Part shown: positions 13,426 through 59,010 of the stretch, piece after piece
Position numbering within the stretch: the first letter of the stretch is position 1
Layout of the letters: each line of letters opens with the position of its first letter
Source: Candidatus Blochmannia vicinus
Lineage (GTDB): Bacteria; Pseudomonadota; Gammaproteobacteria; Enterobacterales; Enterobacteriaceae
Length of the DNA stretch: 64,000 nucleotides
Assembly: GCF_023586525.1 (NCBI RefSeq)
Contig: NZ_CP097763.1
Location: forward strand, 558,001-622,000
Direction of reading: 5' to 3'
Made by a program: the position numbers and the translations under genes
The notes under the pieces: model-generated
The model's input: the letters and a program-made list of their open reading frames with translations, nothing else
What the model was told of the DNA's origin: nothing
The model's database searches: none

Positions 13426-13466
13426 AAGTGATTACAGAATATTGTTAAATTATTCTGTAATCACTT
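13426..13466. repeat. Perfect inverted repeat, 16-bp arms, upstream of aceE
   Basis: Arms at 13426-13441 and 13451-13466 match perfectly as reverse complements, with a 9-nt loop. The arms include several G and C, unusual in this spacer. It lies about 190 bp before the aceE start. No T-run follows on either strand, so an ordinary terminator is doubtful; an operator, a leftover terminator or a template-switch product are options. Confidence 0.85.
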
Positions 13467-13627
13467 CTTTAAGATCAGAAAATAATAAATCAAATAAGTA
13501 AACATAATATATAAAATATTATTTATTAATTTTTAGTACTAATGCTTATAATATATCATTTATTTAAATAAGCGTAATAAGATACATAATAGATTTATTT
13601 TTATACTAATTTTCAGTATTGTGTATA

Positions 13628-13645
13628 TGTTTTATATATAAAACA
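13628..13645. repeat. 18-bp perfect palindrome
   Basis: TGTTTTATATATAAAACA reads the same on both strands. It lies in the aceE-mrcB spacer. The composition is mostly A and T, so chance is possible; no function can be assigned. Confidence 0.6.
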
Positions 13646-14686
13646 ATAATTTTTTTAAATATTTTATGACTACTTCATCATAAAATTATATTTCATATTT
13701 TTTTATAATGATATACTAAAATACATATTAATTTTTGTTTTATTATTTCTTAATAATAATATAATTTTTATATCAAATTAATTTGTTATTTATAAATTTA
13801 TATATAATAAAAGATTGATTTAATGCTTAAATATTTTTAATGTTAAGTTAGATTTTACAGAATTATTATATTTATATTTTTGTTTAATTTTACATATTTT
13901 TAAAATAATAAGAGAATAAATATACTTTCATATCATGAATTTGTAATAATTATAAAAATTTATAATTTCAGACACTAAATCTACTTGATAATTAATATAA
14001 ATTAATTGTATAAATCTATTATTTAATTATTTAAATAAATCGTATATTAAAAATAGTAACTTTAAATATAATTTAATGCCCCTAATACATGAATTATGTT
14101 CTATTTTAGTTTATTCGAAATATTTAATTTATATATTTTATTTCATAGAAATATAAAAAAATATATTATGTTAAAATTATTTAATTTTTTTAAAAAACCT
14201 TTTAACTATATAAAATATATAAAGAATATTCATATATTATATTCATAAATACTACATAGCTTCAATTTATTGCGGTATAAATATAATTATTTTATATATT
14301 TTTAAGTATATTCAAGTCCTATTAAAATTAATTTAATAAAAGTTATTTATAATTTATCAGGAATGCATCTATGTATAAAATATAAGTTCAAAAAACTATT
14401 ATATAAATATAAACTAAAGTTATTATATTATTATTATTTTTCGAATTTAAAACATTCAAGCATTAATTACTAAAAATTAACAATCAAATACACAAATTTT
14501 TATTTAAAAAATGTATAAATTGCTGTAAATTAATTATAGTATTTGAAATATTGTTACTTAAACTTAGTGAATATATAAGTAATTACATAATGGTTATCAC
14601 CTATAATAACAAAAGAAGCATCAAAATTATCATTGATGATTAACTTATCTGAGCATCATAATATGTATTAAAAATTACAATTTTTT

Positions 14687-16984
14687 ATGGATCAATTACC
14701 ATATAAGCGTCATTTAATCATTGTGCAACGAACTTTACATGTTCTATACATTATAATATGCATTTGTGTTTTTATTATCATTCTGATTACAGGATATGGA
14801 ATATTTTTAGATAAGACAATTCAAAGTCGGATTAATGGAAAAGTCTGGAAATTACCTACTGTTGTTTATAGTCGTATGATTAATGTAGAACCTAATATGC
14901 CATATAATAAAAATGACATAATTCATCTATTAGAATCATTACAGTACCGTCAAGTATCTGAAATTACTCATTCAGGAGAATTTGTCGTACATAATAATGA
15001 AATTGAGTTATTTCGTAGACCTTTTAACTTTCCAAGTGGAGAAGAAAGAGAAATACATGCATCCTTTTTTTTTAATCAAGAAAAATTACTACGCATTTAT
15101 AATCAAGACACAAAAAATAATTTTGGATTATTTAGGCTTGATCCCAAAATCATCTCTATTATATATGCTCCTAATGGACAACAAAGGTTACTTTTACCGA
15201 GATCTGAATTTCCAGATATATTAATAGATATGTTATTAGCTATTGAAGATCGTTATTTTTATCGGCATGATGGCATTAAAATATCTTCTATTGGTCGTGC
15301 TTTTTTAGCCAATATTATTTCTGGACGCACTGTACAGGGTGGGAGTACTTTAACCCAACAACTAGTGAAAAATTTATTTTTGAATAATACCCGATCATTA
15401 TGGCGTAAATTTAACGAAGCCTATATGGCTTTAATTGTTGATCATCGGTATAGTAAAGACCGTATTCTTGAGTTATATTTAAATGAAATATATTTTGGTC
15501 AAAATAGAAATGATCAGATTCGTGGATTTCCTTTAGCCAGTTTTTATTATTTTGGAAGACCAATAAGTGAATTAAGTTTGGATCAACAAGCAATGTTAGT
15601 TGGAATGATAAAAGGGGCGTCTTTATATAATCCCTGGAAAAATCCACAGATAACATTAGAACGCCGAAATTTAATACTAAAATTATTGGTGCATAGACAT
15701 ATTATTGATAAAAAGTTATATACCATTCTTATTGCGCGCCCTTTAGGAATACAATCAAAAGACGAAGTATTAATATTACGCCCTGCTTTTACGCAAATGG
15801 TAGACGAAGAAATACAAAATATTGATCAAATTAACGATTTTTCTGGAATAAAGATATTTACGACATTAGACCCTATTTCTCAAAAATCAGCAGAAAAAGC
15901 AATGGAATCAGGTATCCATAATCTAAGATGTTTTTATAAAATAAAAGATTTAGAAGGAGCTATAGTTGTAGTAGATCGATTTAGCGGGGAGATACGTGCT
16001 ATGGTAGGCGGATCTGAACCACATTTTTATGGATTTAATCGCGCTATGTATGCTCGTCGTTCTATTGGTTCGTTAGCAAAACCGGCAACTTATTTAGCAG
16101 CGTTGAGTAATCCTAATAAGTACCACCTTAACACATGGATTGCTGACGAACCTATTACTGTAAAACAACCAAATGGAGTGATTTGGTCCCCTAAAAATTA
16201 TGATCGAAAATTCAGAGGAAAAGTTACTCTTATTGATGCATTTATTAAATCTTTAAACATACCTACCGTTAATTTAGGAATGACAATAGGCTTAGACGCT
16301 GTTTCTAAAATTTTAATAAAATTGGGTATTTCACCTGATTTTATTTCTTCTTTCCCATCTATCCTTTTAGGCTCTATCAATTTGACACCTATAGAAGTTG
16401 CGCAAGAATTTCAAACTATTGCTAATGGTGGCCAATATTCTTCCTTATCGTCTGTTCATTATATTATGAATGAAGAAAATATGATACTATATCAATATTT
16501 TCCTAAAACAGAACGTGTTATTTTCCCTCAAGCAGCTTATTTAATATTATATGCAATGCAACAAGTAGTAGCACAAGGAACTTCTTATGTTTTATCTGTA
16601 AAATTTCCTTATTCACAATTGGCAGCTAAAACTGGCACTACCAATGATCTTCGCGATAGTTGGTTTGTTGGAATTGATGGAAAGGAAGTAACTGTAATTT
16701 GGATAGGACGAGACAACAACGGAGCGACTAAATTAACAGGGACGAACGGAGCATTAACTCTATATAGTCTTTATTTAGAATATCAAAAGCCTACCCCTTT
16801 GTGTTTAATACCACCTAGTGGTATTAAACACATGCCTATAGATAATCATGGTAATTTTGTTGTACATGATAATAAAAATACTTGTTGTCAGGCGTTACCA
16901 GTATGGATAACCGATCAGCAGTTATTATATCGGTTATCCAACCAAACAAACATAGTTTCATACGATTCAGCAATCAATAAATAA
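14687..16984 (+). CDS. mrcB: Bifunctional peptidoglycan synthase PBP1b
   Basis: PBP1b polymerises glycan strands and cross-links peptides at the inner membrane. The product is 765 residues (E. coli 844), shorter because the charged cytosolic tail and about 40 C-terminal residues are missing. A membrane anchor is at about 18-40, followed by the UB2H region. The glycosyltransferase motif AIEDRYFYRHDG contains catalytic E187, and QGGSTLTQQLVKN follows. The transpeptidase motifs are SLAK (S462, K465), SLN (522-524) and KTG (648-650). All catalytic residues are kept, implying an active wall synthase in the symbiont. A perfect 15-bp inverted repeat lies in the 3' part at 16800-16832. No clear Shine-Dalgarno sequence. 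Confidence 0.97.
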   Translation: MDQLPYKRHLIIVQRTLHVLYIIICICVFIIILITGYGIFLDKTIQSRINGKVWKLPTVVYSRMINVEPNMPYNKNDIIHLLESLQYRQVSEITHSGEFVVHNNEIELFRRPFNFPSGEEREIHASFFFNQEKLLRIYNQDTKNNFGLFRLDPKIISIIYAPNGQQRLLLPRSEFPDILIDMLLAIEDRYFYRHDGIKISSIGRAFLANIISGRTVQGGSTLTQQLVKNLFLNNTRSLWRKFNEAYMALIVDHRYSKDRILELYLNEIYFGQNRNDQIRGFPLASFYYFGRPISELSLDQQAMLVGMIKGASLYNPWKNPQITLERRNLILKLLVHRHIIDKKLYTILIARPLGIQSKDEVLILRPAFTQMVDEEIQNIDQINDFSGIKIFTTLDPISQKSAEKAMESGIHNLRCFYKIKDLEGAIVVVDRFSGEIRAMVGGSEPHFYGFNRAMYARRSIGSLAKPATYLAALSNPNKYHLNTWIADEPITVKQPNGVIWSPKNYDRKFRGKVTLIDAFIKSLNIPTVNLGMTIGLDAVSKILIKLGISPDFISSFPSILLGSINLTPIEVAQEFQTIANGGQYSSLSSVHYIMNEENMILYQYFPKTERVIFPQAAYLILYAMQQVVAQGTSYVLSVKFPYSQLAAKTGTTNDLRDSWFVGIDGKEVTVIWIGRDNNGATKLTGTNGALTLYSLYLEYQKPTPLCLIPPSGIKHMPIDNHGNFVVHDNKNTCCQALPVWITDQQLLYRLSNQTNIVSYDSAINK
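16800..16832. repeat. Perfect inverted repeat (15-bp arms, 3-nt spacer) inside mrcB
   Basis: Arms 16800-16814 and 16818-16832 are exact reverse complements. They encode the segment around CLIPPSGIKHMP (about residues 705-716), which still aligns with E. coli PBP1b, so the repeat is superimposed on ordinary coding sequence. Confidence 0.9.
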
Positions 16985-58331: not shown

Positions 58332-58349
58332 AGAATTTAGGAAAAATTT

Positions 58350-58637
58350 ATGCCTCGTTCTATTAAAAAAGGTCCATTTATAGACCTGCATCTTCTGAAA
58401 AAAGTAGAAAAAGCAATAGAAATAGGTGATAAAAAACCTATTAAAACTTGGTCGAGACGATCAACAATATTTCCAAGAATGATTGGTTTAACTATATCGA
58501 TACATAATGGACGTAAACATATACCTGTATTCATCTTAGATGAAATGGTTGGGCATAAATTAGGCGAGTTTTCTCCAACTCGTACCTATCGTGGCCACTC
58601 GGTTGATAAGAAAACAAAAACCATTGTTAAAAAATAA
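58350..58637 (+). CDS. rpsS: 30S ribosomal protein S19
   Basis: S19 lies in the 30S head and contacts RimM and the A-site region. The product has 95 residues (E. coli 92), starting MPRSIKKGPFIDLHLLKKVE with KPIKTWSRRSTIFP and HKLGEFSPTRTYRGH. It is 18 bp after rplB with TTAGGA upstream. Confidence 0.98.
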   Translation: MPRSIKKGPFIDLHLLKKVEKAIEIGDKKPIKTWSRRSTIFPRMIGLTISIHNGRKHIPVFILDEMVGHKLGEFSPTRTYRGHSVDKKTKTIVKK

Positions 58638-58680
58638 TTATAATCTTAAAAATAAGATTTACTATAGGGGATAGTCTGGT

Positions 58681-59010
58681 ATGGCAACAATTGCTAGATA
58701 CCGTTATATTCGTTCTTCTGCTCAAAAGCTTCGTTTAGTAATCAATATGATCCGAGGGAAAAAAGTATCTCAAGCACTTGATATTTTAGAATATACTAAC
58801 AAGAAAGCTGCAAAATTAGTAAAAAAAACTTTAGAATCTGCTATTGCTAACGCGGAACATAATGATGGTTTAAATTTTAATAATTTAAAAATTATTAAAA
58901 TTTTTGTTGATAACGGGCCTACTATTAAAAGAATCATGCCACGAGCTAAAGGACGATCAGATAAAATTATGAAACGAACAAGTCACCTTACCATAATGGT
59001 ATCTAATTAA
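58681..59010 (+). CDS. rplV: 50S ribosomal protein L22
   Basis: L22 reaches into the exit tunnel with a beta-hairpin. The product has 109 residues (E. coli 110) and contains RSSAQKLRLVINMIRGKKV, AIANAEHN, KIFVDNGPTIKRIMPRAKGRSD and HLTI. AGGGGA precedes the ATG. A perfect 15-bp A+T-only inverted repeat with a 2-nt spacer covers codons about 64-75 (58872-58903). Confidence 0.98.
   Translation: MATIARYRYIRSSAQKLRLVINMIRGKKVSQALDILEYTNKKAAKLVKKTLESAIANAEHNDGLNFNNLKIIKIFVDNGPTIKRIMPRAKGRSDKIMKRTSHLTIMVSN
58872..58903. repeat. Perfect inverted repeat (15-bp arms, 2-nt spacer) inside rplV
   Basis: Arms 58872-58886 and 58889-58903 are exact reverse complements around AA, all A and T. They encode NFNNLKIIKIF, where E. 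coli has IDDLKVTKIF. Confidence 0.8.

What the first reader, a model, noticed from the sequence alone, without database searches (positions are those of the whole stretch)
13426..58903. Unexplained set of perfect inverted repeats with tiny loops, mostly inside conserved genes
Seen: arms of 13-20 bp with loops of 2-11 nt in cysG, murB, alaS, rplV, mrcB, trmD, birA and pheA, plus intergenic copies at 13426 and 53980. Sequences differ, so it is not a dispersed element. Rough expectation: with pairing probability near 0.3 per base and about ten loop sizes, 16-bp perfect arms should occur about 0.003 times in 64 kb. Several spacers are exactly 2 nt. Inference: a mutational process such as template switching that perfects quasi-palindromes, perhaps unchecked in a lineage without recA, or selected mRNA hairpins.
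Basis: partly seen in the sequence, partly recalled or inferred. Interest (0 to 1): 0.75.

Follow-up and report, generated by a model that had tools for sequence, protein, structure and literature searches.

The report
Self-correcting DNA hairpins in ant symbionts
The genome of a bacterium that lives inside ants is strewn with perfect DNA hairpins, even inside essential genes, whose two halves keep changing together, most likely because one half is copied onto the other in cells that have lost enzymes that normally guard against such hairpins.

Summary
The window has 9 perfect inverted repeats (arm >=13 bp, loop <=12), 8 in genes; 500 codon-preserving shuffles gave a mean of 0.3 coding ones, at most 2. 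The whole 778,501-bp genome (genus Blochmannia) has 107 with arms >=14; Markov controls give 0.4-0.6. Seven related genomes, whole or sampled, show 6-18 per 100 kb, 62 control loci 1-1.5. Genome-wide most lie between genes. Between species arms change together: in 154 hairpins perfect in both of two genomes, 145 substitutions and 20 indels are mirrored in the opposite arm. Some loops are reverse-complemented, and an inverted triplication turns round at a hairpin with its loop flipped. No G-U preference, clear terminator signature or dispersed family was found. Best explanation: hairpin-templated copying (template switching) creates and maintains them. All 14 Blochmannia searched lack a recA, lexA, sbcD or recJ match and an xseA match over cut-off; all have recB. 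Long Blochmannia palindromes were already published and read as selected; this evidence favours mutation. The replication step and the responsible gene loss are inferred; one-arm and strand-bias tests were weak or negative.

The parts
13426..13466 (.). intergenic perfect inverted repeat, arms 16 bp, loop 9 nt
   Evidence: the hairpin is also perfect in G009 and G011, with mirrored differences between the three genomes; the G009 loop resembles the reverse complement but not significantly (p 0.083)
16800..16832 (+). inverted repeat in mrcB (ORF 14687-16984), arms 15, loop 3
   Evidence: 14-bp arms in G011, best perfect arm 7 in G009, 5 or less in the five other relatives aligned
26328..26373 (+). 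inverted repeat in cysG (ORF 26236-27660), arms 22, loop 2
   Evidence: hairpin of 16-22 bp in 8 of 9 Blochmannia aligned (best arm 5 in B. floridanus); 7 of 22 pairs changed on both sides
   Evidence: arms 12 in G009, G007 and G013, 11 in G002, 9 or less in G011, G004, G005 and B. floridanus; one T/C difference is mirrored by A/G in the other arm
37258..37291 (+). inverted repeat in alaS (ORF 34842-37493), arms 16, loop 2
   Evidence: 15-bp arms with loop 1 in G009; 10 or less in the other eight aligned; the G011 differences are not mirrored
40718..40751 (+). inverted repeat in trmD (ORF 40656-41450), arms 14, loop 6
   Evidence: best perfect arm 9 in G011 and 5 or less in the eight others aligned; the left arm differs from relatives at several sites that now match the right arm, with amino-acid differences
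45585..45616 (-). inverted repeat in pheA (ORF 44760-45680), arms 13, loop 6
   Evidence: 13-bp arms also in G011, 8 or less in the seven others aligned
51844..51882 (+). inverted repeat in murB (ORF 50903-51937), arms 17, loop 5
   Evidence: 17-bp arms also in G009, 8 or less in the six others aligned
52163..52201 (+). inverted repeat in birA (ORF 52098-52913), arms 14, loop 11
   Evidence: 15-16-bp arms in 6 of 7 relatives aligned; G011 has two substitutions mirrored in both arms, Thr to Glu in one arm, synonymous in the other
53981..54033 (.). intergenic inverted repeat, arms 15, loop 23
58872..58903 (+). inverted repeat in rplV (ORF 58681-59010), arms 15, loop 2
   Evidence: 15-bp arms also in G011, 10 or less in the six others aligned

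Best explanation
The repeats are products of a DNA-level process in which one arm of a short inverted repeat is used as template for the other. A chance quasi-palindrome folds back in single-stranded or nascent DNA, synthesis continues on the folded arm (or on the sister strand), and the arms become perfect complements, sometimes with the loop reverse-complemented. The same process then maintains the hairpin: a mutation in one arm is either erased or copied into the other, so the hairpin persists while its sequence changes. Selection for protein function keeps most such hairpins out of genes; those that stay rewrite short stretches of protein. The likely reason for their abundance in Blochmannia is the joint loss of the hairpin nuclease SbcCD, RecA, the SOS repressor LexA, ExoVII and RecJ, with RecB kept. 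Shown: the excess, the mirrored differences, the persistence above a neutral simulation, a few loop inversions, and no database match for recA, lexA, sbcD and recJ (xseA none over cut-off). Inferred: that the copying happens at replication forks, that selection explains the rarity in genes, and which lost gene is responsible (sbcC, xseB, recC and recD were not searched).
For: Excess over Markov and codon-preserving controls. Orthologue comparisons: where both sides of a stem pair differ, 85 of 92 are Watson-Crick in coding repeats and 565 of 788 in non-coding ones; independence predicts about a third (both directions of a genome pair counted). 154 hairpin pairs perfect in both of two genomes carry 145 mirrored substitutions and 20 mirrored indels, the indels all non-coding. 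Of 107 repeats in G000, 50 (G009) and 47 (G011) have a >=10-bp hairpin at the place; neutral decay at the flank rates leaves 16.6 on average, 28 at most in 100 simulations. 18-pair stems with 0, 1, 2 mismatches: 57, 21, 34 in G000, against 0, 0.3, 3.3 in the mean of 3 Markov sequences. Loop test on 46 comparisons: 17 direct, 7 inverted (4 loci), 22 ambiguous. The inverted triplication at G000:237583-239827 turns round at a 15-bp inverted repeat in mqo whose 14-nt loop is reverse-complemented at the junction. For cysG 0 of 500 shuffles reach the covariation score and every slid control is lower. recA, lexA, sbcD and recJ have no match in 14 of 14 Blochmannia and xseA none over its cut-off; recB is found in 14 of 14. 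E. coli lacking SbcCD and RecA forms inverted duplications at a palindrome, and a section heading states that RecBCD degradation is required (PMC3315005: abstract, outline and one section seen).
Against: If each perfecting were one event copying one arm, derived changes should sit in one arm. The excess is weak: 33 of 83 repeats against 25.9 expected, p about 0.05; 22 of 50 against 13.8 in an overlapping earlier version; 3 of 7 against 2.6 in the closer pair. No replichore-by-arm association: right arm recipient 10 and 13, left 4 and 6 in the two replichores, though the E. coli process favours the leading strand. ExoI is matched in 13 of 14, and recB, whose loss raises template switching in E. 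coli, is kept. The 22.6 kb of B. floridanus has only 1 repeat >=14. Gullanella, with recA but no sbcD match, has 3 repeats >=14 in 22.6 kb; Thiodubiliella, with no sbcD match over the cut-off and recA matched only in two pieces under the cut-off, has 0 in 22.6 kb, so gene loss and repeat density are not tightly tied. Two of the four inverted-loop loci rest on short or AT-rich loops. In one search two of the five measures are less striking (7 and 200 of 500 shuffles reach them).
Confidence: 0.8

Rival explanations
1. Selection keeps the hairpins as functional RNA or DNA structures (mRNA stability, attenuation, termination, cruciforms). The authors of the B. vafer genome paper leaned this way for palindromes with arms of 30 bp or more.
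For: Persistence above neutral decay and covariation are also what selection would give; the cysG hairpin is shared by 8 of 9 genomes aligned. In G009 intergenic repeats are denser between convergent genes (0.54 per kb) than elsewhere (0.27-0.29), and G000 and G009 have slightly more adjoining T tracts than random positions (10 and 8 against 5.8 and 4.9, sd about 2.4).
Against: One-sided changes on the coding strand show no G-U preference: 101 G-T, 88 A-C, 99 other. Rarer in genes (25 in about 600 kb) than between them (71 in about 178 kb). In G000 and G011 intergenic repeats are as dense between divergent genes as elsewhere, and G011 has fewer T tracts than random (7 against 9.1). Loops inverted at some loci. 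Presence differs between close relatives. Loops of 0-2 nt are common.
Confidence: 0.1
2. Arm-to-arm conversion without replication (overlaps with the best explanation): mismatches in an extruded hairpin or cruciform are repaired by excision on one arm.
For: Would give the same mirrored changes; my data on tracts do not separate the two.
Against: mutS has no match in 13 of 14 Blochmannia; loop inversion and the inverted triplication are not expected from repair within one hairpin. Repair by other pathways remains possible.
Confidence: 0.15
3. Sequencing or assembly artefact (fold-back chimeras).
For: Such artefacts also turn round at hairpins; the triplication with 763-bp arms could be one.
Against: Repeats recur at orthologous places in separate assemblies with mirrored differences; long palindromes are reported for B. 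floridanus, B. vafer and B. pennsylvanicus, and in B. vafer they impeded sequencing and assembly (PMC3017870, passages).
Confidence: 0.02
4. Chance in an AT-rich genome.
For: None found.
Against: 18 AT-rich control loci (332 kb; half of them Borreliella, so not independent) have 5 repeats >=14, 1.5 per 100 kb.
Confidence: 0.005

Closest known systems
Quasipalindrome-associated template-switch mutation (E. coli lacZ reporters; PMC6357072, PMC7202029, passages)
   Same: Imperfect inverted repeats are perfected with one arm as template; RecA not required
   Different: There a mutation hotspot measured at one reporter; here a genome-wide standing set of about 100 perfect hairpins, about half of them present in the sister genomes. 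The leading-strand bias was not seen here
Coding palindromes of Nematomorpha mitochondria (PMC6649704; abstract, Discussion and passages)
   Same: Perfect inverted repeats inside conserved protein genes, nearly all-or-none perfection, gains and losses between species, conversion proposed
   Different: Mitochondria and up to 284 bp; here a bacterial chromosome with coding arms up to 26 bp. Their long repeats avoid 3-3 codon pairing; here 3-3 pairing is commonest (14 of 25), as in their short repeats
Arm homogenisation and spacer inversion in Saccharomyces cerevisiae (PMC8604942; abstract and outline only)
   Same: The same two footprints, including multinucleotide amino-acid changes
   Different: 39 genes over S. 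cerevisiae evolution; here denser, and the hairpins persist with mirrored change
Long palindromes in Blochmannia (PMC3017870; passages)
   Same: Same genus; 20, 10 and 6 large palindromes in B. floridanus, B. vafer and B. pennsylvanicus
   Different: Searched from 30 bp up with 3 mismatches allowed, all but two at least partly intergenic, thought likely to decay without selection; the passages seen do not treat shorter or coding ones, mirrored change or loop inversion
Inverted duplication at a palindrome in E. coli lacking SbcCD and RecA (PMC3315005; abstract and one section)
   Same: Genotype resembles Blochmannia (no sbcD or recA match, recB present); product resembles the inverted triplication in G000
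   Different: A 246-bp interrupted palindrome placed in E. coli; here natural repeats of 15 bp and up

Membership tests
Quasipalindrome template-switch products | Imperfect repeat becomes perfect, matching the other arm | tested here: met
   e.g. G002 12408: three changes, all in the right arm; trmD; excess of mismatch-free stems
Quasipalindrome template-switch products | Changes of a single event confined to one arm | tested here: inconclusive
   33 of 83 one-arm-only against 25.9 expected; 3 of 7 against 2.6 in the closer pair
Quasipalindrome template-switch products | Spacer inversion as an alternative outcome | tested here: met
   7 inverted, 17 direct, 22 ambiguous of 46 comparisons; mqo junction
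Quasipalindrome template-switch products | Leading-strand bias | tested here: inconclusive
   33 events, no replichore-by-arm association
Quasipalindrome template-switch products | Occurs during DNA replication, measurable as a mutation rate | not testable with these tools
   needs mutation accumulation or reporters
Nematomorpha-type coding palindromes | Perfect repeats embedded in coding genes, above codon-shuffle expectation | tested here: met
   25 coding >=14 against mean 0.9
Nematomorpha-type coding palindromes | All-or-none perfection | tested here: met
   57, 21, 34 stems with 0, 1, 2 mismatches in G000; 45, 22, 26 in G009; 57, 36, 31 in G011
Nematomorpha-type coding palindromes | Long repeats favour phase 1 and avoid phase 3 | tested here: not met
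   phase 3 commonest, 14 of 25; the paper finds phase 3 preponderant among its short repeats, so the test is weak at these lengths
Rho-independent terminators | T tract after the stem, placed at gene ends | tested here: not met
   T tracts 10, 8, 7 against 5.8, 4.9, 9.1; in G009 only, convergent spacers are denser
Dispersed palindromic elements (REP-like) | Copies share sequence | tested here: not met
   16 alike pairs at E <= 1e-3 among 107 repeats, the only strong one being the triplication itself
Known RNA families | Match to Rfam | tested here: not met
   6 tRNAs only at gathering thresholds in the window

The most novel reading that the evidence does not exclude
Loss of hairpin surveillance has put the Blochmannia chromosome under genome-wide hairpin conversion: once a stem forms it is self-perpetuating, evolves in concert, drives amino-acid change in conserved proteins and can seed inverted duplications. 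The hairpins behave like non-mobile selfish elements, and the genus is a natural long-term experiment in living without SbcCD, RecA and SOS.
Probability: 0.45. Interest if true: 0.78.

Novelty: new variant of a known kind. Interest (0 to 1): 0.66.

Why it matters
Covarying perfect stems are normally taken as strong evidence of a selected RNA structure, and clusters of amino-acid changes as signs of adaptation. Here both arise in essential genes, most likely from mutation alone, so covariation-based RNA discovery and tests for positive selection in reduced symbiont (and possibly organelle) genomes need a control for hairpin conversion. It also turns a published selection argument for Blochmannia palindromes into a testable mutational one, and gives many natural events with which to ask which lost repair gene releases palindromes.

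Tried and rejected
Terminators: not supported. Dispersed element: rejected. Rfam families: only tRNAs. Special 2-nt spacer: not borne out. One-arm bias as proof of single events: weak. Replication-strand asymmetry: none; recipients were right 23, left 10 regardless of replichore, which I cannot explain. Protein change inside coding repeats is only slightly higher (amino-acid differences in 12.6% of codons in repeats against 10.7% in flanks; codons with two or more changes 4.2% against 2.6%; no significance test). recA loss as sole cause: not supported. The null of the first loop test was faulty (random pairs drawn partly from the same locus) and the test was replaced; one search crashed and was rerun, altered. 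Genome-wide gene calls are a greedy longest-ORF set (>=100 aa), so coding/intergenic counts are approximate. The persistence simulation models substitutions only and looks inside the original repeat with loops up to 30, while the observed counts accept a hairpin (loop <=12) within 40 bp; the two are close but not identical measures. Rows dropped: 20 of 363 repeats could not be aligned in both other genomes; of 498 repeats, 473 were aligned and 422 used (gaps <=20%); 16 of 170 hairpin pairs had unlike arms and were left out of the mirrored counts. Literature: the searches listed no paper whose title or abstract describes mirrored hairpin evolution in a bacterial endosymbiont; most subscription journals are not held and the listings were capped.

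
Full report
What the window is. It is bases 558001-622000 of a single-contig genome of 778,501 bp. Thirteen other genomes found are of the same genus; one, G010, has alaS at the same coordinates as the Blochmannia floridanus record BX248583.1, so I take the genus to be Blochmannia, the ant symbiont.

The observation. The gene names are right. Nine repeats have arms of 13 bp or more; Markov sequences of order 1, 3 and 5 (40 each) average 0.1, 0.175 and 0.125.

Genome-wide. 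G000 has 107 repeats with arms >=14 and 80 with arms >=16; two sets of five order-3 Markov sequences average 0.6 and 0.4, and 0. G009 (780,000 of 780,612 bases) has 85 and 62, G011 (770,000 of 783,877 bases) 138 and 95. The 80-kb stretches of G013, G007, G002, G005 and G004 have 5-10 repeats >=14 each, 6.2-12.5 per 100 kb; 22.6 kb of B. floridanus has 1, 4.4 per 100 kb. Of the 64 loci, the 62 other than L031 (B. floridanus) and L036 (Gullanella) have 1.0-1.5 per 100 kb in each of three GC classes (many are Exiguobacterium or Borreliella orthologues, so not independent), and 50 kb of E. coli K-12 has none. Coding: 25 repeats >=14 against a mean of 0.9 in 20 synonymous shuffles; intergenic 71, edge 11. 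Genes of >=100 aa cover 77% of the genome, so the repeats are about ten times denser between genes. The window, where 8 of 9 lie in genes, is not typical.

Evolution. I aligned 363 repeats (arms >=14, loops up to 40) of three genomes, 86-88% identical around the repeats, to their orthologues. Where both partners of a coding stem pair differ between genomes, 85 of 92 still pair; in non-coding repeats 565 of 788; independence predicts about a third. Of 170 hairpin pairs perfect in both genomes, 154 have alike arms; 82 of these carry at least one mirrored substitution, 145 in all, and 17, all non-coding, carry 20 mirrored indels; 66 have identical arms. Window examples: cysG, whose stem has changed on both sides at 7 of 22 pairs among 8 distinct sequences yet stays 16-22 bp in 8 of 9 genomes (0 of 500 shuffles reach the covariation score or the percentage paired, 7 reach the number of doubly changed pairs, 200 the number of pair types); birA, where G011 has a Thr-to-Glu change in the left arm mirrored by synonymous changes in the right arm; trmD, where of the genomes aligned only this one has a 14-bp stem. 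Not every hairpin behaves so: the alaS differences in G011 are not mirrored. In the closer trio G013/G007/G002 (93-95% identical) there are clean cases, such as three derived changes confined to the right arm of G002 12408.

Maintenance. 50 and 47 of the 107 G000 repeats have a >=10-bp hairpin at the same place in G009 and G011. Mutating them at the flank rates leaves 16.6 on average, 28 at most in 100 runs. Eighteen-pair stems without a mismatch outnumber those with one or two in all three genomes, the all-or-none pattern that Mikhailov and co-workers took as a sign of conversion in Nematomorpha mitochondria (PMC6649704, Discussion).

Mutation or selection. Compensation through RNA should favour G-U intermediates: on the coding strand one-sided changes are 101 G-T and 88 A-C. 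Intergenic repeats do not look like terminators: adjoining T tracts are 10, 8 and 7 against 5.8, 4.9 and 9.1 at random intergenic positions, and density does not depend on gene orientation in G000 and G011, though in G009 convergent spacers are denser. Of 46 loop comparisons 17 are direct, 7 inverted (4 loci; at a 0.02 cut-off about one or fewer expected by chance) and 22 undecided. At G000:237583-239827, beside the GC-skew minimum, a stretch of about 0.75 kb is present as forward, inverted, forward copies, with a perfect palindrome of 763-bp arms; G009 and G011 have one copy. The first turn is at a 15-bp inverted repeat in mqo and its 14-nt loop is reverse-complemented at the turn; the second is at another palindrome. 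This is what synthesis folding back at hairpins would leave, though an assembly artefact cannot be excluded.

Results that do not fit neatly. The excess of one-arm changes is weak (33 of 83 against 25.9, p about 0.05; 22 of 50 against 13.8 in an overlapping earlier set; 3 of 7 against 2.6 in the closer pair), and no strand asymmetry appears. At about 12% divergence several events per repeat may overlay each other, which would blur this test; small copy tracts would too.

Why here. In 14 of 14 Blochmannia, models for RecA, LexA, SbcD and RecJ have no match; XseA has none over its cut-off (three weak matches lie in other long frames); MutS matches only G008, with an in-frame TAA; ExoI matches 13; RecB matches all 14, in two pieces in G008. 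SbcC, XseB, RecC and RecD were not searched. In E. coli recB and lexA3 mutants, but not recA mutants, have raised constitutive template switching (PMC6357072, passages), and SbcCD and RecA prevent inverted duplications at palindromes (PMC3315005). Absence of SbcCD, RecA and SOS is therefore the cause I would bet on, but RecB and ExoI are kept, and two small comparisons do not line up simply (Gullanella and Thiodubiliella).

Known and new. Palindromes from 30 bp up were reported in three Blochmannia in 2010 and thought likely to decay without selection (PMC3017870, passages); the six-genome paper of 2015 has no occurrence of 'palindrom' or 'inverted' in its main text (PMC4389277). Template switching and its footprints are known from E. 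coli, yeast, great apes and RNA genes (PMC7202029 and PMC8794818, passages; PMC8604942, abstract; PMC7954356, search listing only). New, as far as the nine searches reach, is a bacterial chromosome where this acts genome-wide and keeps hairpins perfect across species, inside essential genes too.

Noticed in passing
G000:C1:237583-239827 (outside the window; in L106): Inverted triplication of about 0.75 kb (perfect palindrome with 763-bp arms) beside the GC-skew minimum, between guaB and mqo; single copy in G009 and G011; first junction at a hairpin with flipped loop
   Followed up: partly
G000:C1:68662-68793: Perfect palindrome with 66-bp arms across the 3' end of a 471-aa ORF; its right arm matches the reverse complement of the gene end of G009 and G011 at 87-88%, and G009 has a 20-bp-arm palindrome there
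   Followed up: partly
L036 (Gullanella endobia), 1533-13654: Three repeats with arms >=14 in 22.6 kb, a density like Blochmannia, in a symbiont that has recA but no sbcD match
   Followed up: partly
G008:C1:212174-214672: The only Blochmannia mutS match has one in-frame TAA
   Followed up: no
G001: No ExoI C-terminal domain match, unlike the 13 other Blochmannia
   Followed up: no
coding repeats of G000: Third codon positions pair with third positions in 14 of 25 coding repeats, perhaps because mirrored changes are then silent in both arms
   Followed up: no
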